Source: Lentisphaera profundi
Lineage (GTDB): Bacteria; Verrucomicrobiota; Lentisphaeria; Lentisphaerales; Lentisphaeraceae
Reading direction: 5' to 3'
Length of the DNA: 64,000 nucleotides
Assembly (NCBI RefSeq): GCF_028728065.1
Contig: NZ_CP117812.1
Span: 1,116,001-1,180,000, forward strand
Shown here piece by piece: positions 3,255-33,063 of the stretch. Numbering within the stretch: position 1 is the first letter of the stretch; the number at the start of each line of letters is the position of its first letter. The translations under genes were made by a program, and so were the position numbers. Below the pieces are notes generated by a model that was not told the DNA's origin, did not search any database, and saw only the letters and a program-made list of their open reading frames with translations.

Positions 3255-3316
3255 CAGTGTTCTCCCACCCTGGGAGGCAAGGTGTGCCCACCTTGAGAGG
3301 CGGTAAAAGTACTGAG
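3255..3316. repeat. Palindromic repeat unit
   Basis: One unit of the family arrayed at 6.05-7.03 kb, in opposite orientation: the arms AAGGTG/CACCTT around GTGCC, followed by GAGAGGCGGTAAAAGTACT. It lies just downstream of the Fic stop codon, as it does at 28.57 kb. Confidence 0.7.
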
Positions 3317-3340: not shown

Positions 3341-4408
3341 CTATGCAGAAGGGCTTTGGTAGGTAGTAGCTTTCCCTACACCAAACTTTAGAATAAGACC
3401 TTGCTTCACTAAGAAATTAAGGTCTTTTTTAATTGTGGGCAGAGATGCACTCTCGATTTCTCGAGCAAGATCTCCTGAGCGCATTTTCCCTTTTAGATTG
3501 AGTAAGTCAATGATCCTTTTTTGTCGGGCATTGAGATAAGTGTCATTGCGTACAATACGCTCCAACTTATTTTCCAGTTTTGCTGACAACTGGATCATAC
3601 AATCAAGAAAAAAATCAATCCAGCTTCCTATACGTTCATCATCAGTAGAACGATTGCGCTGACATTCCATCAAAATTTGATAATACTCTTTTTTTCTTTC
3701 TTCAATAATATGTTCAAAAGACACATACTGAACAAAATAATATTCTGAACGCACCAAAAGTAAGGTTGTCAAAAGACGTGATAGCCGGCCATTACCATCA
3801 TGAAAGGGGTGAATTGATAAAAACTCATAAACAAAAGTAGCTATTACAATAAGCGGATTCATTTCTATATTAGCCAATTTTGCATTACACCACTCTATGA
3901 GCTCATCCATTTCTTTATCCACTAGATGAGGTTCGGTGGTATTGAATATTGTTTTTTGAGTTCCATCTGGATAGTTCGCAACTACCCGATTTGATATATT
4001 CTTATACTGGCCACGTTGTCGTGTGTCTTTTTCTGAGTATTTGAGCAGAAGGCCGTGCAGTTGAAATATATAACGCTGTGACAAGTCTAAGTCTTCTGCA
4101 TTATCCAGCAAGACCTCAAGCGCATCCCAGTACCCGATGACTTCTTGTTCGTCACGAGTATCGAGTTGTCTCTGCTCAAGGTTATCTAGAAGATGTATAA
4201 CTTCTTGGTCTGATAGTTGACTTCCCTCAATACGTGTAGATGAGCCAATACTCTGAATCGTCGCTATATGCCTAAGCTCCTGAAGGAATTGGTCCTCTTT
4301 AATCTTTAAAGCTTCCCATTTACCTCTAAACTTCTCTATAATTCCTATCTTCGCAATGATCCCTTGAGAAAGCTTAGGACTAAAAACTAATTTATCTGAA
4401 ATATTCAT
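3341..4408 (-). CDS. Fic family protein with C-terminal winged helix, copy 1
   Basis: Fic-domain protein of 355 aa. The full catalytic motif HPFHDGNGRLSR (~195-207) predicts AMP transfer, or transfer of another nucleotide moiety, to a protein target. An N-terminal inhibitory helix motif (STRIEG, pattern SxxxEG, ~57-62) marks a class II self-inhibited Fic. The C-terminus (~290-350) looks like a winged helix-turn-helix, so it may regulate its own gene; two palindromes in the upstream DNA fit this. A near-identical copy lies at 28645-29712, and both sit just upstream of a pilin operon promoter on the same strand. No antitoxin partner gene is adjacent. Cytoplasmic; target unknown. Confidence 0.9.
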   Translation of the reverse strand: MNISDKLVFSPKLSQGIIAKIGIIEKFRGKWEALKIKEDQFLQELRHIATIQSIGSSTRIEGSQLSDQEVIHLLDNLEQRQLDTRDEQEVIGYWDALEVLLDNAEDLDLSQRYIFQLHGLLLKYSEKDTRQRGQYKNISNRVVANYPDGTQKTIFNTTEPHLVDKEMDELIEWCNAKLANIEMNPLIVIATFVYEFLSIHPFHDGNGRLSRLLTTLLLVRSEYYFVQYVSFEHIIEERKKEYYQILMECQRNRSTDDERIGSWIDFFLDCMIQLSAKLENKLERIVRNDTYLNARQKRIIDLLNLKGKMRSGDLAREIESASLPTIKKDLNFLVKQGLILKFGVGKATTYQSPSA

Positions 4409-4998: not shown

Positions 4999-5031
4999 AT
5001 GAATCATTTTAAAAAACGGAAAATAATATGA
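4999..5031 (+). CDS. Leader ORF duplicating the start of the next gene
   Basis: Ten-codon frame MNHFKKRKII whose TGA overlaps the ATG of the DUF1080 gene. Its first six codons nearly repeat that gene's own start (MNQFKKY), so it looks like a short tandem duplication of the start region that turned the old start into an upstream reading frame. A comparable arrangement precedes the gene at 11194. Confidence 0.35.
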   Translation: MNHFKKRKII

Positions 5032-6032
5032 ATCAGTTTAAAAAATATTTGAGTGCTTGTCTCGTACTAGGCTTGAGCCTTATCTCACTGGCTGCGGCTA
5101 AATCCGCAGACTCATTTAGTGGTCGCTGGGAACTGAAGCTACCAAATCAAGGCAAAGGATGGATGAGCCTTCAAGAGCAGGAAGGAGAATGGTCCGGGTC
5201 GATACTCTGGGGAGGTGGAAGTGTAAAGGCACTGAGCACTGTAGAATTAGAAGGTGATAAAATTATTTTCACTCGTAAACAAAGGATTAAAACTAAAGCT
5301 TCTGCGGGTAAAGCAGCGGCATGGAAAGAAACGGTGGAAACCACTACTGCAAGTCTGGAAGGAAATAAAATGAGCTTAGAGCAAGTGCTTCCTAAGTCGA
5401 ATGGATCGGGTGTAAAGCGCGCGACTTATAGCGCCAAAAGAATGTCAGCAATTCCCCCGCAACCCGATCTTAAACAAGCAAGATTTGGTGAGGGAGTTGA
5501 ACTCTTTAATGGAAAGGATTTGAGTGGCTGGAAACTGCTTCATGCGAGCCACAAAAATGGCTGGTCAGCGAAAGACGGCGTCCTAGTTAATAATGCGGTT
5601 CAGGGTCAGCATGGCTACGGTAATCTCATGACCGAAGCAAAGTTTGAAGACTTTAATTTGAAGCTCGATTTCAATGTACCAGCAAAGAGCAATAGCGGAA
5701 TATTTCTTCGAGGCATGTATGAAGTTCAGGTACTCGACTCCTTTGGTCGCAAACCAGATCTTCATAATATGGGTGCAATTTATTCGCGTATTGTGCCTTC
5801 TCAAGCAGCCGCAAAAAAAGCGGGTGAATGGCAGACAATGGATATTACCTTAATCAAGCAGCATGTAACAGTGATCCTTAATGGTATTACCATTATCAAT
5901 AATAAGCCCTTGCTGGGATGCACTGGTGGTGCTTTATCATCTGATCCTTTAGCTCCAGGTCCCATTTTGCTTCAGGGCAATCATGGTGCAGTAAGTTTTC
6001 GCAATATCGTCTTGAAACCCATCATCCATTAA
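5028..6032 (+). CDS. Secreted DUF1080 (3-keto-disaccharide hydrolase-type) protein
   Basis: Secreted protein of 334 aa. Signal peptide (1-23), a beta-rich domain of ~100 residues (SGRWELKLPNQGKGWMSL...), then a DUF1080 domain from ~157 that opens with the hallmark LFNGKDLSGWK and contains SGIFLRGMYEVQVLDS. DUF1080 is a concanavalin-like fold; some members hydrolyse 3-keto-glycosides. In PVC bacteria these proteins commonly occur with polysaccharide-degradation genes. The gene stands alone with its own ECF-like promoter and is followed by a repeat array. The substrate cannot be deduced. Confidence 0.8.
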   Translation: MNQFKKYLSACLVLGLSLISLAAAKSADSFSGRWELKLPNQGKGWMSLQEQEGEWSGSILWGGGSVKALSTVELEGDKIIFTRKQRIKTKASAGKAAAWKETVETTTASLEGNKMSLEQVLPKSNGSGVKRATYSAKRMSAIPPQPDLKQARFGEGVELFNGKDLSGWKLLHASHKNGWSAKDGVLVNNAVQGQHGYGNLMTEAKFEDFNLKLDFNVPAKSNSGIFLRGMYEVQVLDSFGRKPDLHNMGAIYSRIVPSQAAAKKAGEWQTMDITLIKQHVTVILNGITIINNKPLLGCTGGALSSDPLAPGPILLQGNHGAVSFRNIVLKPIIH

Positions 6033-6044
6033 AATATTTAGCAG

Positions 6045-7030
6045 CACTTTTACCGCCTCTCAAGGTGGGCACACCTTGCAGGGAAGGGGACGGAGTCCCA
6101 AGTCATACATGGAAAGACAAAAAGGTGGTGATTACCGCCTCACAAGGCATTTAGCTTTTTACTGCCCGTGTAACAGCACTTTTACCGCCTCTCAAGGTGG
6201 GCACACCTGGCAGGGAAGGGGACGGAGTCCCAAGACTTCAAACAAAAAATATGGGGTGGTGATTACCGCCTCACTCCGGCGGGGAGGTGTTGCCACACGG
6301 GCGGATGAAAATAAAATTACCGCCTCTCAAGGTGGGCACACCTTGCAGGGAAGGGGACGGAGTCCCAAAAATTCAAACAAAAATATAGGGTGGAGATTAC
6401 CGCCTCACTCCGGCGGGGAGGTGCTGCCACACGGGCGGATAAAAAAGTGCTGCCACACGGGCGGATAAAAAAGTGCTGCCACACGGGCAGATAAAAATAA
6501 AATATCCGCCTCTCAAGGTGGGCACACCTTGCAGGGAAGGGGACGGAGTCCCAAAACAGTTGGAGGGTATGATATCGCTTAACAGCGGGTTGCGATTGCC
6601 ATCGCAGGCGGATAATTTAATATCCATGTTGAAGCACTTTTACTGCCTCTCAAGGTGGGCACACCTTGCAGGGAAGGGGACGGAGTCCCAAGAATTCAAA
6701 TAAAAAATATAGGGTGGTGATTACCGCCTCACTCCAGCGGGGAGGTGTTGCCACACGGGCAGATAAAAATAAAATAACCGCCTCTCAAGGTGGGCACACC
6801 TTGCAGGGAAGGGGACGGAGTCCCAGAACAGGTAAAGGGTATTGTATCGCTTAACAGCGGGTTGCGATTACCATCGCAGGCGGATGATTTAATATCTATG
6901 TTGAAGCACTTTTACCGCATCACAAGGTGGGCACAGCTTGCAGGGAAGGGGACGGAATCCCAAAACAAGATGAGGGTATGGTATCGCTTAACAGCGGGTT
7001 GCGATTGCCATCGCAGGCGGACTAGCTTCG
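6045..7030. repeat. Array of palindromic repeats (REP/BIME-like)
   Basis: Non-coding block with seven copies of a ~50-bp unit starting near 6062, 6194, 6329, 6515, 6652, 6787 and 6924, spaced about 130-190 bp. Each carries two hairpins: AAGGTG-GGCA-CACCTT and GGGAC-GGA-GTCCC. Between them are copies of other units, CGCCTCACTCCGGCGGGGAGG, TGCCACACGGGCGGATAAAA and AACAGCGGGTTGCGATT. Reading frames here are by-products of the repeats. Reversed copies lie at 3.3, 28.5 and 29.8-30.2 kb. Confidence 0.85.
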
Positions 7031-7118
7031 CAAAATTTTACCTAACACCCCTTAAGTTCGCTAGCCTTAGGCGGTGCCCCCTTGTTTAAGGCTAATCGTG
7101 ATTTTTTTAATTTTTACT

Positions 7119-7146
7119 AGATACGATTTTATTTTGCTCTTGTTTA
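7119..7146 (+). promoter_or_regulatory. ECF-like promoter of GH95 gene
   Basis: AGATACG, 13 nt, CTTGTTTA on the plus strand, ending 36 nt before the ATG. A perfect match to the form upstream of the 34-37 kb operon on the other strand. Confidence 0.65.
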
Positions 7147-7182
7147 ATTTTTTATAATCAAATAAATTATTCGGGAAACTTC

Positions 7183-9609
7183 ATGTTCAATAAAAAAATC
7201 ATACGCAGTGTCTTCATCAGCTTATCAGTGCTTCAGGCAGTAAGCGTTTTTGGCGCAGATAAGCAAGATAGAGACCAAGTAGCTTCAGCTAGCATAAATG
7301 AAAATAAATCGACAAACTCATTGTGGTACAAGCAAGCCGCGCAAGGCTTTGATCAATCACTCGTACTCGGCAATGGTCGCCTAGGTGCCATGGTCTTCGG
7401 CGATGCTGACGAGGAGCGCATAGTGCTCAACGAAGAATCGGTTTGGTCGGGCTCAGTAGCGGAAAATAATATTTCCGGTGGGTACAAAAACTTAGCAGAA
7501 ATTCGCCGCCTCCTAGGAGAAGAAAAATTTTCCGAAGCGAAAAAACTCATGGGCCAGTCTTTTAAAGCGAAGAATGCCCCTAAATATGCAAAAAGTATTT
7601 CTGCCTTTGGACGCTACCAAGTTCTTGGAAATCTTCACCTGAAATTTCTTGCTAAGAAGAATCAAGTCAGTAAATATCGCCGTGAGTTGGATCTAAGTTC
7701 TGCACTTGCAAGCGTCAAGTACCAAGTTGGTAAAACGAAATATACCCGTGAGCATTTTGTCTCTAAAGTAGATGAAGTCTTTGTGTCGCGCTTTTCGGGC
7801 CCGGTATCTTTTTCTATACAACTCGATCGTCCAGAAAGATTTAAAACCACGGCAGTCAATGAGCGTGAATTACTAATGACCGGTAGTCTTAATGATGGCT
7901 TTGGTAAGGATGGACTGACTTACGCCGCTCGTTTACGTGTTGTCGCACCAGGTGCATCGATCAAAGTCGATGGCAATAAACTCATTGTTGAATCAAAAGA
8001 TGAAGTACTTTTACTGGTGGCTGCGGCGACTGATTACCGCGGTATTGCGGGACGTCAACTTGTTGATCCCTTGGCCGCCACAACTTCCGATCTTGATAAG
8101 GCGGAGAAAAAGTCTTTTGTCAATTTGCGTAAAGCGCAAAAAGCCGATCATGAGAAATTCTATAATCGCGTCAGTTTGGATTTAGATAAGACAAAAATTA
8201 GTGACTTAGCCACTGACGAACGCTTAGCCGCTTACCGCAAAGGTACGGCGGATCCTTCTTTAGCCGCTTTATTTGCCAATATGGGACGTTACCTCTTAAT
8301 TAGCTCATCACGTCCAGGTGGCTTGCCTGCCAATCTCCAAGGGATATGGGCCGAAGAGCTTCACACCATGTGGAATGGTGACTATCACTTCAATATCAAT
8401 ACCCAGATGAATTATTGGCCCGCCTTGACTTGTAACCTCGTTGAGATGCAAGAACCAATGAATAATTTTATTGCTTCACTCGTTGAACCAGGATCAAAAA
8501 CGGCCAAAGCTTATTACGACTCACCGGGTTGGATTGCTCATAGGCTGACAAATGTCTGGGGCTATACCGCACCTGCGGGTATGGATATAGGTGGACCCGC
8601 CTGGTTATGTGAACACCTCTGGGAGCAATACGCTTTCACTAAAGACAAGAAATTTTTAGCTGAAGTTTACCCCATCATGAAAGGCTCTGTTGACTTTTAT
8701 CTTCATAATCTTTGGGAAGAACCTGAAAATAAATGGTTGGTGACGGGCCCCTCGGCTTCACCCGAGAATGGTTTTTTACTTCCAGGTAAGAAAAAGGGCG
8801 GATCGGGAATTTGCGCTGGCCCTACGATTGATATGCAGCAGTTGCGCGAACTCTTTGGCAATACGATACGCGCGGCCAAAGTTCTTGGTATCGATAAAGA
8901 CTTGCAGGGCGAACTCCTTGAAAAACGTGCTCGTCTTGCCCCTAATCAGATTGCACCCGATGGTGTTCTACAGGAATGGCTCAAGCCCTATATCGAACGC
9001 GAGCCGACTCATCGTCACTGCTCACCCTTATATGGTCTTTACCCCTATTATGAGATCACGCCCGATGGAACGCCTAAAATGGCTGAAGCCGCACGTAAAT
9101 TACTTGAACGTCGAGGTATGGGGCAGAGTACGGGATGGTCGAACGCGTGGAGAATCAATCTCTGGGCGCGCATGAATGATGCCCAAAAATCTTGGGACTT
9201 TGTTAAGCGCATGATTATGGATAATTGTTTTGATAATATGTTGAGCTTATTCCGCCCACTGAAAAATGGCAAGGGCAAAAAGCTCTTCCAAATCGAAGCC
9301 AATTTCGGTTTTACTTCGGGATTTGTGGAAATGCTGATGCAAAGCCAGCCCGATAGCGGCGCTATCGATGCCGAGCCAGTAATCCGTGTACTTCCGGCCC
9401 TGCCTAAAGAATGGCCAAATGGCAAAGTAACGGGCTTGTTAGCTCGCGGTGGTTTCGAAGTCGATATCGAATGGAAAGATGGCAAGCTAGTTGAATGTAA
9501 GATCAGCTCGCTGAACGGCAATCCGTGTAAAGTTCGCTACGGCTCCAAAACACAAATCGTAAAATTGAAAGCTGGAAAAGTTAAAAAACTTTCCGCATCT
9601 GATTTTTAA
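7183..9609 (+). CDS. GH95 family alpha-L-fucosidase/galactosidase
   Basis: Secreted GH95 enzyme of 808 aa, full length for the family. Signal peptide to ~24; N-terminal beta domain beginning [27 protein letters not shown] and [13 protein letters not shown]; helical (alpha/alpha)6 catalytic domain with GIWAEELH and [11 protein letters not shown] (the two Asn positions known to assist catalysis in Bifidobacterium AfcA); a C-terminal domain with [28 protein letters not shown]. It removes terminal alpha-L-fucose or alpha-L-galactose, fitting fucoidan- or mucin-like substrates alongside the sulfatases downstream. The last 42 codons of a second GH95 gene survive at 12078-12206. Confidence 0.92.
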
Positions 9610-16008: not shown

Positions 16009-16570
16009 GGGATCGCCAAGCACTAGCTTGGCCTTGACTTTCCCGGGACAGCGGGCTTCGCCCGCCTCAAACAGCGATAAGGGCTTCGCCCAGCTCAAAT
16101 AGCGATACAGGACTTCGCCCAACTCAAGCCACCTGGGATCGCCAAGCACCAGCTTGGCCTTAATTTCTCGGGAAAGCGGGCTTCGCCCAGCTCAAACAGT
16201 GATACAGGGCTTCGCCCACGAGGGAGCTCTGCCCCTCGAGCACCCCGCAAGGAAATGCCTTTCCTTGACCAGGCGATAAAGGGCTTCGCCCAACTCAAAC
16301 AGTGATATAGGGCTTCGCCCACGAGGGAGCTCTGCCCCTCGAGCACCCCGCAAAGACTTGCCAGCCTTTGATCCGGCTATAGGGCTTCGCCCTGTTCAAA
16401 CAGCGATAAGGGGCTTCGCCCACGAGGGAGCGCTGCCCCTCGAGCACCCCGCAAGGAAATGCCTTTCCTTGACCAGGCGATAAAGGGCTTCGCCCAGTTC
16501 AAACAGCGATATAGGGCTTCGCCCGGCTCAAACAGTGATATAGGGCTTCGCCCACGAGGGAGCGCTGGCC
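16009..16570. repeat. Array of GGGCTTCGCCC hairpins
   Basis: About eleven copies of the perfect small hairpin GGGC-TTC-GCCC (near 16053, 16081, 16178, 16207, 16281, 16310, 16382, 16411, 16485, 16514 and 16543), often ~29 bp apart with CAAACAGTGATA between. They are mixed with longer units: GAGGGAGC(T/G)CTGCCCCTCGAG and AAGGAAATGCCTTTCCTTGACC, and CTTGG-containing units at both ends. No protein frame is credible. Related units occur at 41.05-41.15 kb. Confidence 0.85.
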
Positions 16571-28494: not shown

Positions 28495-28620
28495 TTTATC
28501 TGCCTCCTGTGGCAGCCGCTCTCCGTGCGGCAGCAACTCCCCGTTTTCGATGAATTGTAGGGACTCCGTCCCCATCCCTGCAAGGTGTGCCCACCTTGAG
28601 AGGCGGTAAAAGTACTGATT
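28495..28620. repeat. Palindromic repeat units next to fic copy 2
   Basis: Reverse-oriented units as in the 6 kb array: CTGTGGCAGCCGC, GGGACTCCGTCCCC and AAGGTGTGCCCACCTTGAGAGGCGGTAAAAGTACTGA. At 3.26-3.32 kb the same spot beside the other fic copy has a shorter version, so the units expand or contract independently of the gene. Confidence 0.75.
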
Positions 28621-28644: not shown

Positions 28645-29712
28645 CTATGCAGAAGGGCTTTGATAGGTAGTAGCTTTCCCTACACCAAACTTTAGAATAA
28701 GACCTTCCTTCACTAAGAAATTAAGGTCTTTTTTAATTGTGGGCAGAGATGCACTCTCGATTTCTCGAGCAAGATCCCCTGAGCGCATTTTACCTTTTAG
28801 ATTGAGTAAGTCGATGATCCTTTTTTGTCGGGCATTGAGATAAGTGTCATTGCGTACAATACGCTCCAACTTGTTTTCCAGTTTTGCTGACAACTGGATC
28901 ATACAATCAAGAAAAAAATCAATCCAGCTTCCTATCTGTTCAGCATTAGTAGAACGATTGCGCTGACATTCCATCAAAATTTGATAGTACTCTTTTTTTC
29001 TTTCTTCAATGACATGTTCAAATGACACATACTGAACAAAATAATATTCTGAACGCACTAAAAGCAAGGTTGTCAAAAGACGTGATAGCCGGCCATTACC
29101 ATCATGAAAGGGGTGAATTGATAAAAACTCATAAACAAAAGTAGCTATGACAATAAGCGGATTCATTTCTGTATTAGTCAATTTTTCATTACACCACTCT
29201 ATAAGCTCATCCATTTCTTTATCCACTAGATGAGGTTCGGTGGTATTGAATATTATTTTTTGAGTTCCATCTGGGTAGTTCGCAACTACCCGATTTGATA
29301 TATTCTTATACTGGCCACGTTGTCGTGTGTCTTTCTCTGAGTATTTGAGTAGAAGGCCGTGCAGTTGAAATATATAACGCTGTGACAAGTCTAAGTCTTC
29401 TGCATTATCCAGCAAGACCTCAAGCGCATCCCAGTACCCGATGACTTCTTGTTCGTCACGAGTATCGAGTTGTCTCTGCTCAAGATTATCTAGAAGATTT
29501 ATAACTTCTTGGTCTGATAGTTGACTTCCCTCAATACGTGTAGATGAGCCAATACTCTGAATTGTCGCTATATGCCTAAGCTCCTGAAGGAATTGGTCCT
29601 CTTTAATCTTTAAAGCTTCCCATTTACCCCTAAACTTCTCTATAATTCCTATCTTCGCAATGATCCCTTGAGAAAGCTTAGGACTAAAAACTAATTTATC
29701 TGAAATATTCAT
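28645..29712 (-). CDS. Fic family protein with C-terminal winged helix, copy 2
   Basis: 355 aa, nearly identical to copy 1 at 3341-4408 (scattered substitutions such as VINLL for VIHLL), with intact HPFHDGNGRLSR and STRIEG motifs and the winged-helix tail. DNA similarity covers roughly 28448-29826, i.e. the gene, its two upstream palindromes and ~200 bp downstream, and stops abruptly on both sides. As with copy 1, it points toward, and lies just upstream of, a pilin-operon promoter. Intact reading frames in both copies suggest recent duplication or selection. Confidence 0.9.
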   Translation of the reverse strand: MNISDKLVFSPKLSQGIIAKIGIIEKFRGKWEALKIKEDQFLQELRHIATIQSIGSSTRIEGSQLSDQEVINLLDNLEQRQLDTRDEQEVIGYWDALEVLLDNAEDLDLSQRYIFQLHGLLLKYSEKDTRQRGQYKNISNRVVANYPDGTQKIIFNTTEPHLVDKEMDELIEWCNEKLTNTEMNPLIVIATFVYEFLSIHPFHDGNGRLSRLLTTLLLVRSEYYFVQYVSFEHVIEERKKEYYQILMECQRNRSTNAEQIGSWIDFFLDCMIQLSAKLENKLERIVRNDTYLNARQKRIIDLLNLKGKMRSGDLAREIESASLPTIKKDLNFLVKEGLILKFGVGKATTYQSPSA

Positions 29713-29819: not shown

Positions 29820-30200
29820 CGCTTTATCCGCCCTCGGTGGCAGCCGTGCCCGTGCGGCAATACCTCCCCGCCGGAGTGAGGCGTAATAATCTACATTGTT
29901 TTATTCTGTGTAGTAGGGACTCCGTCCCCATCCCTGCAAGGTGTACCCACCTTGAGAGGCAATAACAAATATTTATTACACCACTCTTTCCTTTTATCCG
30001 CCTGCGGTGGCAGCCGTGCCCGTGTGGCAACACCTCCCCGCCGGAGTGAGGCGTAATAATCTTTATTCTCGATGAATTGTAGAAAGTGGAAAATTCTGTA
30101 GTCTTTTGCTAGAGACGGCATTAATCTTTTTATCCGCCTCCGGTGGCAGCCGGGCCCCATCCCTGCAAGGTGTGCCCACCTTGAGAGGCGGTAAAAATCT
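29820..30200. repeat. Palindromic repeat array
   Basis: Reverse-oriented copies of the 6 kb units: GGTGGCAGCCGTGCCCGTG three times (one shortened), CCTCCCCGCCGGAGTGAGGCG twice, GGGACTCCGTCCCC and AAGGTGTGCCCACCTT. It separates fic copy 2 from an esterase remnant. No gene seen. Confidence 0.8.
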
Positions 30201-30206
30201 AAGTAC

Positions 30207-30344
30207 TTATTGATCCGCGACAATTCTCTGTGTTTTCAGCCAATTTGTCACTTCCGCAAACCAGTCGCAGCCACCCATGCCATGGCCACCTTTTTCAAAG
30301 AGTTTTAAGTGAGGGGCATTGCCTGCGGCACTTAATTTTAGTGA
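30207..30344 (-). pseudogene. C-terminal remnant of the alpha/beta-hydrolase
   Basis: About 45 codons (LSAAGNAPHLKLFEKGGHGMGGCDWFAEV... ADQ*) matching the end of the alpha/beta-hydrolase halves at 1432 and 31527. Its first ~80 bp are almost identical to 31590-31672 and form a direct repeat around the 303-aa gene and the deleted acetylesterase. Confidence 0.8.
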
Positions 30345-31256
30345 TTATTTGATGATGATTTTGACTTTCGCTGGATGGAGAGGGTCGGACTTTTTAACTT
30401 TATTAGCGGAACCACTTTTGTTATTTCTGATGGTCGAAGCAAGCATGAGGGTGAAGCCACTAAGCATTGGTGGGTTGTTGCCGTAATTTATAATACCAAA
30501 AGTTGAGCTCGTGCGTTCGCCGTCTAAAACTTCTAAGTCAATCATTCTTCCTTTCCAATAATCTTTTATCGAAGCTTCACTAGAGTGACCACTTAGATTG
30601 GCTGATTCAGTATATTTGAAAGTTTTTTTATTTTTACCTTTTAATTGGATTCCGGAACGTGAGTAGCTTTTTTTTACTTTTGTCCATTCGCTATCCTCTT
30701 TGATAATAAAGGCAGGAGGGAAAATGAGGTTGGCATGTGAGATTGTCATGGGACTTAGTCCAGAGGGATCTACTGTGTTATTTTCAATGATAATTGCTTT
30801 GTCTTCAAAAGCTATATTTAGTGTATGAATAACATTGTTTTGTAATTCACACTTGAGCTTGATTGATTTAGGGTTTTCTAAAGGAGTAGGAGTTTCAAGA
30901 AATTTCACCACGCGTCTAGCAGCAGATCGTTTGGTTTTTTGATCGTAATAAAAGTGTCTAATGCTCAGCTGGATAGCGCCATTATAGGAGTTTTCAGCCG
31001 TTGATTTAGATTTGGGTAGAATATAAAATCCACCTCTTGAATCAAGAAAAGCAGTGTAAGTACTCCCATGATAAATTGTGTTGACCTGTAAAGTGTCTAT
31101 GATTTTTTCATTAGCCTTTTTACTCTTGATTAAATTGGGGCATTGCACCGTAATATCCTTGAGTACTTTTAGACTGTTAATATTTCTGTTCTGAGCATAT
31201 GCTAGGTTGCAGATGAATAGTAGGCCTAAAAGGGCGTAGGAGGAGAGTTTGTTCAT
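30345..31256 (-). CDS. Secreted protein of unknown function
   Basis: 303 aa with a clear signal peptide (MNKLSSYALLGLLFICNLAYAQ) and no family I recognise. It is beta-strand-rich and polar, with a basic end (VKKSDPLHPAKVKIIIK). Internal segments such as YHGSTYTAFLDSRGGFYILPK and HANLIFPPAFIIKEDSEW suggest a lectin-like or carbohydrate-binding fold, but that is a guess. It begins 3 nt after the deleted acetylesterase gene, so it is at the end of that esterase operon, and its stop abuts an esterase 3' remnant. No homologue appears at the equivalent place in copy 1, which is cut by the window edge. Confidence 0.7.
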   Translation of the reverse strand: MNKLSSYALLGLLFICNLAYAQNRNINSLKVLKDITVQCPNLIKSKKANEKIIDTLQVNTIYHGSTYTAFLDSRGGFYILPKSKSTAENSYNGAIQLSIRHFYYDQKTKRSAARRVVKFLETPTPLENPKSIKLKCELQNNVIHTLNIAFEDKAIIIENNTVDPSGLSPMTISHANLIFPPAFIIKEDSEWTKVKKSYSRSGIQLKGKNKKTFKYTESANLSGHSSEASIKDYWKGRMIDLEVLDGERTSSTFGIINYGNNPPMLSGFTLMLASTIRNNKSGSANKVKKSDPLHPAKVKIIIK

Positions 31257-31259
31257 AAT

Positions 31260-31523
31260 TTATTCCTTAATGATTGTTTTAAATAATGAAGCTGGCAAAC
31301 CCGCTTTATTGTAAAGATTAGCCCCTTCGGGGTTGGAGGCCCAGGCGTAGCGAACTTCGACTGGCTTAGCGATGATTGAGCTTTCCGCTTCACCCATGCC
31401 CCACACGGGAACTTTGATTCCTTGCTGTAAGACCATTCCATCCGAAAAAATGCCTGCGACGCTGAGCTCAGTCGCGAAGGTATTTGTCGCGGCGAGCACA
31501 AGGATGAATATGAATAGTTTCAT
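31260..31523 (-). pseudogene. Sialate O-acetylesterase with large in-frame deletion
   Basis: 87-codon frame: the first ~50 residues equal the acetylesterase at the window start ([10 protein letters not shown]..., [18 protein letters not shown]), then it jumps to [31 protein letters not shown], the family C-terminus. About 1.27 kb present in copy 1, including the GQSNM nucleophile, is gone, yet the frame is preserved. Such a peptide would be secreted but not catalytic. Confidence 0.88.
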
Positions 31524-31526
31524 ATC

Positions 31527-32320
31527 TTATTTGGGTAATTGTGTGATTTTCTGTGCTTTGAGCCATTGGGCCACTTCTGAGAACCAGTCGCAGCCACCCA
31601 TGCCATGGCCACCTTTTTCGAAGAGTTTTAAGTGAGGGGCATTGCCTGTGGCACTTAATTTTTTCACGTAATCAATTCCTCCAGCGCAGAACTTATCATC
31701 TTTGGAATAGGTGAGGAAAGTGGGAGCAATTTTGTTTTTAAAGGGAAAAGTTTTTGTATCCATGGTTTTGCCAAAGGGACGGCCATGAAAATAGGCAGCA
31801 CACTGAAGGACTACAAAGTTAGGTTCACAGCTTTCCTTATCGGCCTCATCGAAGGGTTCATAAATTTTTTGATCATAATTTTGACTGAGGCGGGCGGAGA
31901 GGTGACCGCCTGCTGAGTTGCCAAAGATACCGATGTTATTGGGATCGATATTCCATTTTTGTGCTTGTGAACGCACGAGGCGTATGGCGCGCTGCAAGTC
32001 TTGGAAAGCCTTGTCAGGCTGATCGGGGATGGAGTAGCGGTGAACAAAAACAGTGATGCCCAAATCATTCCATTGCTGAATATGCTCGCGATCGGGAATC
32101 CCGAGGATCTTGTAGGCGCCACCTGGATTATAGATGAGTGCGACGGCAGGCTGATCAGTTTTTGCGGGGTAGACGGTGAGGTAGGGATCTTTAACTCCGC
32201 AGAGTTGTGGATTTCCCCGGCGATCGCGAAATTCTAATTTGAGGCGATTGGCTTCGCCACCAACTCGTTCGATGGGCCAGAGGCGGATGATGGGATCCTC
32301 ATTCGGGCTGATTTTTTTTT
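31527..32320 (-). pseudogene. Alpha/beta-hydrolase half, split off by frameshift
   Basis: Corresponds to residues ~260-510 of the fused esterase at 1432-2982 (AVALIYNPGGAYK, GNSAGGHLSA, GGHGMGG; ending QLPK*). The frame is open back to about 32320, where it should join the GDSL half, but a ten-T run (A10 on the coding strand) carries one extra base relative to copy 1. Without slippage it has no proper start; ATG 32063 gives only 178 aa. Catalytic Ser and His are intact. Confidence 0.8.
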
Positions 32321-33063
32321 TCTACCTTAGATTTTTTTGCACTCCTCGCAGGAGCATTATCATATTTTACCAAGATGGCATTGAGTGCCTTGCCCCAAGC
32401 TGTGTAACCTTGATTACTTAAATGAAGTTGGTCACGCCCGTAGAGCTCAGTTTTTAGTTCACCATTAGCATCTTGAAAGATGGAACTTAGATCATGGTGA
32501 AAGATTTGCTTGCTGTCAGCTAATGCAGGGAGGAGTTTATTTAAAGCTTGAACTTCTTTATAATCTTCACCTTTGCCTCTTGAGTGATGGCGAGGAAAGA
32601 CAGAGAATAAAAGGATCTTAGTTTCGGGAAGGCGCGCTTTTAATTCTGCAATAATAGCTTTTATACCAAGGACAATATCTTCGGCTTTGTTTCTCGTGAT
32701 ATTATTAGTCCCAATCATAATACTGACGAATTTGGGTGAGAGGCCGTCAATTTCACCATTTTGCAGTCGCCAGAGAACATTCTGGGTGCGATCACCGCCA
32801 AAGCCGAGATTGAGAACATTATAGGGCGCAAAAACTTTTGGGTAAGTTTTCTGCTTCTCCCAATAATGAGTAATGGAATCGCCAATCATGAGCAAATCAA
32901 TATCGCCTTTTTTGGCTTCGTTCAGTTTTTCTTGGTGACGTGGAGCCCACCATTGATGACGGCCTTTTTGCGGTTTTGTAGTTGATATTGGATCCTGAGC
33001 ATGAAGACTTAAGAAAGTAGAGATTAGCAAGAGACTAAAGATAGCGAGAAAGGGGATTTTCAA
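32299..33063 (-). CDS. Secreted GDSL esterase (fusion split by frameshift)
   Basis: 254 aa: signal peptide, then the GDSL domain (MIGDSITHYWE, NLGFGGDRTQNVLW, IGTNNI, DQLHLSNQGYTAWGKAL) and the start of the Lys linker (KKSKVEKK), after which the frame shifts and stops at NQPE*. The GDSL domain is complete and should be active alone. It has its own ECF-like promoter at 33134-33161. No pilin gene precedes this copy, unlike copy 1. Confidence 0.85.
   Translation of the reverse strand: MKIPFLAIFSLLLISTFLSLHAQDPISTTKPQKGRHQWWAPRHQEKLNEAKKGDIDLLMIGDSITHYWEKQKTYPKVFAPYNVLNLGFGGDRTQNVLWRLQNGEIDGLSPKFVSIMIGTNNITRNKAEDIVLGIKAIIAELKARLPETKILLFSVFPRHHSRGKGEDYKEVQALNKLLPALADSKQIFHHDLSSIFQDANGELKTELYGRDQLHLSNQGYTAWGKALNAILVKYDNAPARSAKKSKVEKKNQPE

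What the first reader, a model, noticed from the sequence alone, without database searches (positions are those of the whole stretch)
6045..7030. Dense array of paired hairpins between two enzyme genes
Seven units with two hairpins each, plus interleaved other units, fill almost 1 kb. Units occur reversed next to both fic genes and at 30 kb. They look like REP/BIME elements but no REP-associated transposase is visible. They may end transcription, stabilise mRNA, or act as recombination hot spots explaining the many broken genes nearby.
Basis: partly seen in the sequence, partly recalled or inferred. Interest (0 to 1): 0.5.

Follow-up and report, generated by a model that had tools for sequence, protein, structure and literature searches.

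The report
Modular hairpin repeats invading gene ends
A marine bacterium carries dozens of copies of a small modular hairpin sequence that settles just after genes and appears to multiply in place; it resembles known bacterial "REP" repeats but is built differently, and no enzyme that moves it was found.

Summary
Window 6052-7021 holds seven copies of a two-hairpin module (A), all on the + strand, with three B modules, two extra B half-hairpins and three C modules. The unit is genome-wide: A 58, B at least 64, C 12 matches in this 5.46-Mb Lentisphaera genome. Of 28 relatives searched with A, only the two congeners match.

Copies are extragenic and lie nearest to gene 3' ends in 27 of 36 arrays; A points one way in 17 of 17 multi-copy arrays. 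At one syntenic locus both other species have overlapping stop codons where this genome has a ~440-nt array that now supplies a gene's last codons and stop. So it is an inserted element that probably then multiplies in tandem.

"No RAYT" holds for the window, not the genome: 17 Y1 transposase matches exist. None of 57 Y1 loci examined in six genomes is convincingly flanked by A or C hairpins; 3 have a B half-hairpin. It is a REP/BIME-like family with mostly direct orientation. The mobilising enzyme is unknown.

The parts
6052..6101 (+). module A copy 1 (hairpins 1 and 2)
6184..6233 (+). module A copy 2
6319..6368 (+). module A copy 3
6505..6554 (+). module A copy 4
6642..6691 (+). module A copy 5
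6777..6826 (+). module A copy 6
6914..6963 (+). module A copy 7
6113..6143 (+). truncated B head behind A copy 1
   Evidence: family D7
6164..6179 (-). inverted B half-hairpin (two mismatches)
   Evidence: inverted repeats
6263..6306 (+). module B copy 1
6397..6440 (+). module B copy 2
6447..6498 (+). two further tandem copies of the 26-nt B half-hairpin
   Evidence: family D6
6721..6764 (+). module B copy 3
6573..6614 (+). module C copy 1
6845..6886 (+). module C copy 2
6982..7021 (+). module C copy 3
7058..7108 (+). terminator-like hairpin with following T-run, between the array and the GH95 gene
   Evidence: fold (z -2.36; 5 of 200 shuffles fold as well); T-run by reading; not listed by the scan
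5028..6032 (+). upstream gene, 3-keto-disaccharide hydrolase domain (PF06439)
7183..9609 (+). downstream gene, GH95 (PF22124)
3277..3307 (-). partial A (hairpin 1) 3' of fic copy 1
28496..28610 (-). A plus a related right end, 3' of fic copy 2
29824..29963 (-). A plus B plus a related right end
30014..30057 (-). module B
30130..30195 (-). A with hairpin 2 replaced, behind a detached gene end

Best explanation
It is a Lentisphaera-specific family of short, composite, non-coding mobile repeats, REP/BIME-like. One unit is roughly 100-150 nt: a left head with two hairpins (module A), an AT-rich spacer, and a right end with two hairpins (B, C or a related end) closing in a GGCGGAT-type motif. SHOWN: many copies; extragenic; nearest to gene 3' ends; uniform orientation of A within arrays; presence here against absence in two congeners at one syntenic site; spacers more alike within an array than between arrays; heads and ends combined in different ways. 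INFERRED: units are dispersed by an enzyme acting in trans that recognises hairpins, most plausibly one of the genome's Y1/HUH (RAYT-type) transposases; insertions survive mainly just after stop codons; an inserted unit then multiplies in place by slippage or unequal exchange between direct copies, which also swaps modules. In the window the array would be transcribed as the 3' untranslated end of the 3-keto-disaccharide hydrolase gene, ahead of a separate terminator-like hairpin. Its effect there is probably passive: RNA 3'-end structure and homology for rearrangement.
For: 58 A, at least 64 B and 12 C matches in the genome. Of 99 A and B copies 1 overlaps an ORF of 200 aa or more, against 65.6 expected at random places in the same loci. 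Nearest gene boundary is a 3' end for 27 of 36 arrays, p=0.004; median distance 66 nt to 3' ends, 235 nt to 5' ends. A orientation uniform in 17 of 17 multi-copy arrays. Filled against empty site: ~440-nt array in G000 where G001 and G002 have overlapping stop codons; the gene's C-terminus ...LCRKCCHTGG* is read from the B half-hairpin. Spacer after A scores 0.62 within and 0.45 between arrays, shuffled 0.36. Mixed heads and ends. Y1-type repeats within or close to a few arrays, and one G002 Y1 gene among composites that join a B half-hairpin to its own repeat.
Against: No cognate transposase: 0 of 57 Y1 loci have GTAG-tagged hairpin 2 or C within 1 kb. The clean empty site is one locus. No target duplication was identified. 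The direction bias is not absolute: 1 of 35 full B and 4 of 59 half-B are inverted. Covariation is thin: one pair in A, one in B, none for the outer stem. A gene end plus element shared with G002 shows that some copies are old rather than mobile. Gene boundaries rest on ORFs of 100 aa or more.
Confidence: 0.6

Rival explanations
1. A canonical REP/BIME family with its own RAYT: hairpin 2 is (or was) a GTAG-tagged REP, moved by a RAYT that is among the 17 Y1 genes or has been lost from the genome.
For: GTAG stands at the foot of hairpin 2 (other strand) in 7 of 9 aligned G002 copies (from three loci) and 3 of 43 in G000. 17 Y1 matches in the genome. A decayed Y1 match (L037) has B hairpins about 40 nt away, and a G002 Y1 gene (L115/L139) has a B half-hairpin upstream. 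In 7 of 17 Y1 genes RAYT-like proteins were seen by reading.
Against: Tag absent from most G000 copies. No A or C hairpin convincingly within 1 kb of 57 Y1 loci, B half-hairpin at only 3. A orientation does not alternate.
Confidence: 0.2
2. The arrays are selected RNA elements: 3'-end structures that protect or regulate the upstream transcript.
For: Preference for gene 3' ends; sense to the nearest 3' end in 19 and antisense in 8 (p=0.052); terminator-like hairpin downstream of the window array.
Against: Patchy presence between congeners; 7 convergent and 6 divergent as well as 23 tandem placements; single modules fold only moderately better than shuffles as RNA; little covariation. Survival of insertions only where harmless explains the 3' preference equally well.
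Confidence: 0.1
3. Integron-type arrays: hairpins recombined by integron integrases.
For: Uniform A orientation. Full-length C modules lie within about 1 kb of a TIGR02249 integrase at 4 of 7 places in G002 and 1 of 7 in G000, mostly just 3' of it. C contains GCTTAAC-5 nt-GTTGC (by reading).
Against: A paired attC-motif scan found 0 in the window and 0 in 26 array loci (0.2 and 1.8 expected from shuffles). In 11 integrase loci it found 4 strand-hits, i.e. two sites, against 1.4 expected, both 5' of the integrase and unlike C. A and B lack the motifs (by reading); no cassette ORFs. The integrase loci with C fall into two or three lineages (by reading), so the association rests on few events.
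Confidence: 0.05
4. Plain tandem duplication of an ordinary intergenic stretch, without mobility.
For: Tandem copies with homogenised spacers.
Against: Dispersed over both contigs with unrelated flanks; filled and empty orthologous site.
Confidence: 0.05

Closest known systems
REP / BIME (bacterial interspersed mosaic elements) and GTAG REPs with RAYTs
   Same: Short palindromes, extragenic, many copies, modular clusters, frequently 3' of genes, hybrids of several hairpin families (passages of PMC2817692 and PMC3733652).
   Different: A copies in one orientation instead of alternating; GTAG tag in 10 of 52 copies only; no flanked RAYT found.
CGTC REPs
   Same: High-copy palindromes described as lacking a dedicated transposase (passages of PMC3733652).
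   Different: The CGTC tag was not tested here; composites of several hairpins rather than single 8-9-bp stems.
REPINs (paired inverted REPs)
   Same: A composite of two end hairpins with a spacer, acting as a miniature mobile unit (abstract start of PMC3116915; detail recalled).
   Different: Left and right ends are different modules, not inverted copies of one REP.
Pneumococcal BOX elements and MITEs (recalled, from no call)
   Same: Modular, non-coding, intergenic, non-autonomous.
   Different: No sequence relation was tested; no target duplication found here.
Integron attC arrays
   Same: Folded recombination sites in one orientation (general knowledge; passages of PMC3108266).
   Different: No paired attC motifs in the arrays and no cassettes.

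Membership tests
REP/BIME | Short palindromic units (20-40 nt) able to form hairpins | tested here: met
   Hairpins of A, B and C; 96.8% and 93.2% of cells paired in 43 and 44 distinct sequences
REP/BIME | Extragenic | tested here: met
   1 of 99 A and B copies in an ORF of 200 aa or more, 65.6 expected
REP/BIME | High copy number in the genome | tested here: met
   58 A, at least 64 B, 12 C; below the >100 copies given for many REPs (abstract of PMC2817692)
REP/BIME | Alternating orientation of units within clusters | tested here: not met
   A uniform in 17 of 17 multi-copy arrays; B and half-B mostly the same, 4 of 59 half-B inverted
REP/BIME (GTAG superfamily) | GT[AG]G tag at the hairpin foot | tested here: inconclusive
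   GTAG at hairpin 2 in 10 of 52 copies: 7 of 9 in G002, 3 of 43 in G000; tags of B and C not tested
REP/BIME (GTAG superfamily) | A RAYT gene flanked by the same units | tested here: not met
   57 Y1 loci: GTAG-tagged hairpin 2 at 0, C at 0, loose hairpin 1 at 1 and hairpin 2 at 1, B half-hairpin at 3. All 17+16+6 matches of G000, G002, G001 but 18 of 37 of G003-G005; six of those 18 loci are cut by contig ends
Integron attC array | Paired R''/R' and L''/L' motifs in each site | tested here: not met
   0 in window and in 26 array loci (own simple scan, not HattCI)
Integron attC array | Adjacent integron integrase | tested here: inconclusive
   C modules near an integrase at 5 of 14 places in two genomes; none in the window
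Mobile element | Presence against absence at an orthologous site | tested here: met
   L077 array 2 against G001 and G002; one clean locus
Mobile element | Target-site duplication | not tested
   Sites too diverged to align base by base; none noticed by reading
Intrinsic terminator | Hairpin followed by a T-run | tested here: not met
   Terminator-like hits 3 against 2.0 expected in 5900-7200, none on an A or C module of the + strand
Known Rfam family | Gathering-score match | tested here: not met
   0 matches in the window

The most novel reading that the evidence does not exclude
The composites are moved as directional units, not as REPs: a hairpin-recognising recombinase other than a RAYT inserts them at gene 3' ends in a fixed order of modules, and arrays grow by repeated insertion next to an existing copy. 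This would explain the uniform orientation, the insertion exactly at overlapping stop codons, and the C modules beside integron-type integrases.
Probability: 0.12. Interest if true: 0.65.

Novelty: new variant of a known kind. Interest (0 to 1): 0.36.

Why it matters
The family is a clear case of hairpin repeats that spread without an identifiable cognate transposase, with an empty site in two sister species that shows insertion at overlapping stop codons. It gives a concrete system in which to ask which enzyme moves such repeats, why one orientation prevails, and how a repeat comes to supply a gene's last codons.

Tried and rejected
Integron attC arrays: suggested by C modules beside integrase genes; set aside because a paired-motif scan found none in the arrays. 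That scan was a simple one of my own, and its two attC-like sites in integrase loci are not a significant excess (4 strand-hits, 1.4 expected). The C-integrase association itself is unexplained and rests on few lineages.

Cognate RAYT: sought in 57 Y1 loci of six genomes; not found. Six loci of G003-G005 are cut by contig ends; in three of them the scripts assumed a wrong position of the match, so those scans are approximate.

Outer CCGCC/GGCGG stem closing the whole composite: start and end variants do not covary. Coding array: the 130-aa ORF at 6076-6468 crosses units whose spacing (132-186 nt) is not constant; taken as spurious, no protein search was run on it. Promoter role: four promoter-like sites in 5900-7200 against 1.3 expected (sd 1.3), all formed by B or C half-hairpins plus the following AT-rich DNA; not followed up.

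Wider distribution: the exact A pattern gave 0 in genome contigs and 0 in viral contigs and a C pattern one match, Lentisphaera marina; the tool may leave out this genome and near ones. L066 flanks found no syntenic locus in G001 or G002. Literature: the listings showed no paper on repeats of this genus; listings were capped (15 of 511, 10 of 58 and 10 of 262). Of papers I saw listings, and passages of PMC3733652, PMC6006769, PMC2817692, PMC3108266 and PMC4666352; none was read whole.

Rows dropped: the A alignment uses 52 of 54 copies (two with a replaced hairpin 2 left out), all with at least 75% coverage in the loci held. One search ignored ORFs that overlap a module by more than 25 nt, which favours intergenic placement; one search repeated the coding test without that step. 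One search counts 75 A hits, partial ones included, in 36 arrays; 52 are full-length. For one search the tool scored 40 of 85 first candidates in G000, so the B count is a lower bound.

Full report
1. What is there. The window is G000:C2:1116001-1180000 of a 5,457,903-base, two-contig genome. Region 6052-7021 lies between a 3-keto-disaccharide hydrolase gene (5028-6032, +) and a GH95 gene (7183-9609, +). It holds seven copies of module A, from 6052 to 6963, three B modules (6263, 6397, 6721), two further B half-hairpins (6447-6498) and three C modules (6573, 6845, 6982), plus one inverted B half-hairpin at 6164. A carries hairpins CAAGGTG-GGCA-CACCTTG and GGGAC-GGA-GTCCC; B and C carry two each. 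Two hairpin patterns gave 27 and 17 matches in the window against 2.9 and 2.2 expected. Folded singly as RNA the modules are only moderately better than shuffles (z -1.95, -1.43, -1.53); four composites as DNA gave z -2.43, -3.57, -2.39 and -3.02. Reversed copies lie at 3277-3307, 28558-28607, 29914-29963 and 30143-30192.

2. Genome-wide count. A has 58 matches on both contigs, B at least 64 (40 of 85 first candidates scored) and C 12. Of 29 genomes searched with A, 3 match: this one, G002 (13) and G001 (one partial), all of one genus; the other 26 do not. For B and C six genomes were searched and the same three match. G001 is Lentisphaera marina: its contig 2 has the length of NZ_JAQZZL010000002.1, which holds the C match at the same place. 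The genus is therefore Lentisphaera. That G000 is L. profundi and G002 L. araneosa is recalled and unproved.

3. Anatomy. In 36 of 52 aligned A copies a closing motif of the GGCGGAT type lies 91-141 nt downstream of the start of A, so most copies belong to a composite of roughly 100-150 nt. The same hairpin 2 occurs behind different heads, and A is followed by B, C or other ends: the parts are interchangeable. Alignment scores are 0.94 within arrays and 0.90 between arrays for A, 0.62 and 0.45 for the 32 nt after it (shuffled 0.36), 0.59 and 0.40 for the 20 nt before it. This suggests local tandem multiplication. Compensatory change exists but is thin: one pair in A (A-U to G-C in 5 of 43 distinct sequences), one in B (G-C to A-U in 11 of 44). 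In both, the number of doubly changed cells exceeds all 500 shuffles while the number of pairs with such a change does not. The outer CCGCC/GGCGG pairing shows none.

4. Placement. Of 99 A and B copies, 1 overlaps an ORF of 200 aa or more and 8 one of 150 aa or more; 65.6 and 67.1 are expected at random places in the same loci. For 36 arrays (27 in G000, 9 in G002 and G001; partial A hits counted) the nearest gene boundary is a 3' end in 27 and a 5' end in 9 (p=0.004). Median distance is 66 nt to 3' ends and 235 nt to 5' ends (Mann-Whitney p=9e-5). A is sense to the nearest 3' end in 19 and antisense in 8 (p=0.052); 23 arrays are in tandem, 7 in convergent and 6 in divergent gene pairs. A copies agree in orientation in 17 of 17 arrays with more than one. 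Full B copies agree with the nearest A in 34 and disagree in 1 (12 have no A within 400 nt); half-B hairpins 55 and 4. Arrays of one genome are not independent samples, and genes were called as ORFs of 100 aa or more.

5. Insertion. Locus L077 is syntenic in G001 and G002. There a pilin-like gene and a convergent gene have overlapping stop codons in both relatives. In G000 an array of about 440 nt with three A copies separates them, and the convergent gene ends ...FLLPALLLCRKCCHTGG* instead of ...LFLPALLSLKEKL* or ...LLLPALLSLKQRD*; its last codons and stop are read from a B half-hairpin. A second array at the locus stands where both relatives have another pilin-like gene, which in G002 appears to be interrupted (by reading). 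At the GH95 locus G002 has three-copy arrays upstream and downstream; G001 has none, and 29 nt between GH95 and the next gene, but gene content differs there. At L072 the left flank is collinear in both relatives and the right flank is not; at L071 the two sides match different places. Arrays thus often mark gene-order differences, without a proper control. Conversely, window 30155-30305 matches G002 across a gene end plus element at 84% over 152 nt, so some copies are old or moved together with the gene end.

6. Which enzyme. The genome holds 17 PF01797 matches, none in the window; several stand among repeat families of their own (by reading). Of 57 Y1 loci in six genomes, none has GTAG-tagged hairpin 2 or C within 1 kb, one has a loose match to hairpin 1 and one to hairpin 2, and 3 have a B half-hairpin. 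One G002 Y1 gene sits among composites that join a B half-hairpin to its own repeat (by reading). Y1-type repeat motifs lie in or within 200 nt of 4 and of 1 of 36 arrays. GTAG, the tag of the GTAG REPs (passages of PMC3733652, PMC6006769), is at the foot of hairpin 2 in 7 of 9 G002 copies (three loci) but 3 of 43 in G000. A Y1 enzyme acting in trans is my best guess, not a result.

7. Integrons. Full-length C modules lie within about 1 kb of a TIGR02249 integrase at 4 of 7 places in G002 and 1 of 7 in G000. They do not look like attC sites: a paired-motif scan gave 0 in the window and 0 in 26 array loci; in 11 integrase loci it gave two sites (4 strand-hits, 1.4 expected), 5' of the integrase in G001 and G002 and unlike C. 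The association is recorded as unexplained.

8. Function. Terminator-like matches in 5900-7200 do not exceed shuffles (3, expected 2.0); promoter-like ones are 4 against 1.3. A terminator-like hairpin lies at 7058-7108, so the array would be part of the upstream gene's 3' untranslated region. Whether it alters mRNA life is untested.

9. Verdict. Observation confirmed; a REP/BIME-like composite repeat family with mostly direct orientation and no identified mover. New variant of a known kind, moderate interest.

Noticed in passing
window 16053-16554: A second tandem array of another hairpin family, with units GGGCTTCGCCC and a longer GAGGGAGCTCTGCCCCTCGAGC part, period 28 and 103.
   Followed up: no
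window 30207-33048: A broken copy of a GDSL/alpha-beta hydrolase gene: the body is split between two frames (31545-33048) and its last 44 codons stand apart at 30207-30338, directly before a reversed hairpin element. An uninterrupted copy is at 1432-2982.
   Followed up: partly
window 3341-4408 and 28645-29712: A duplicated Fic gene, 97% identical over 1267 nt, whose downstream hairpin elements differ in module content, so elements changed since the duplication.
   Followed up: partly
L140, L142, L143, L145 (G002) and L158 (G000): C modules beside integron-type integrase genes, mostly 3' and in sense; unexplained.
   Followed up: partly
L173 5355-5435 and L175 7622-7702: Two similar 81-nt attC-like palindromes 3-4 kb 5' of integron-type integrases in two species.
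   Followed up: no
L032 and L033: Y1 transposases of 142 and 154 aa embedded in arrays of their own hairpin repeats; possibly the REPtron-like class 3 Y1 of PMC6006769 (passage), not tested.
   Followed up: no
L068 4041-4766: A 241-aa ORF whose first possible start lies inside an A element.
   Followed up: no
L160 3' flank of the integrase: A long run of the short repeat GGCATCA directly after an integrase gene, followed by hairpin repeats.
   Followed up: no
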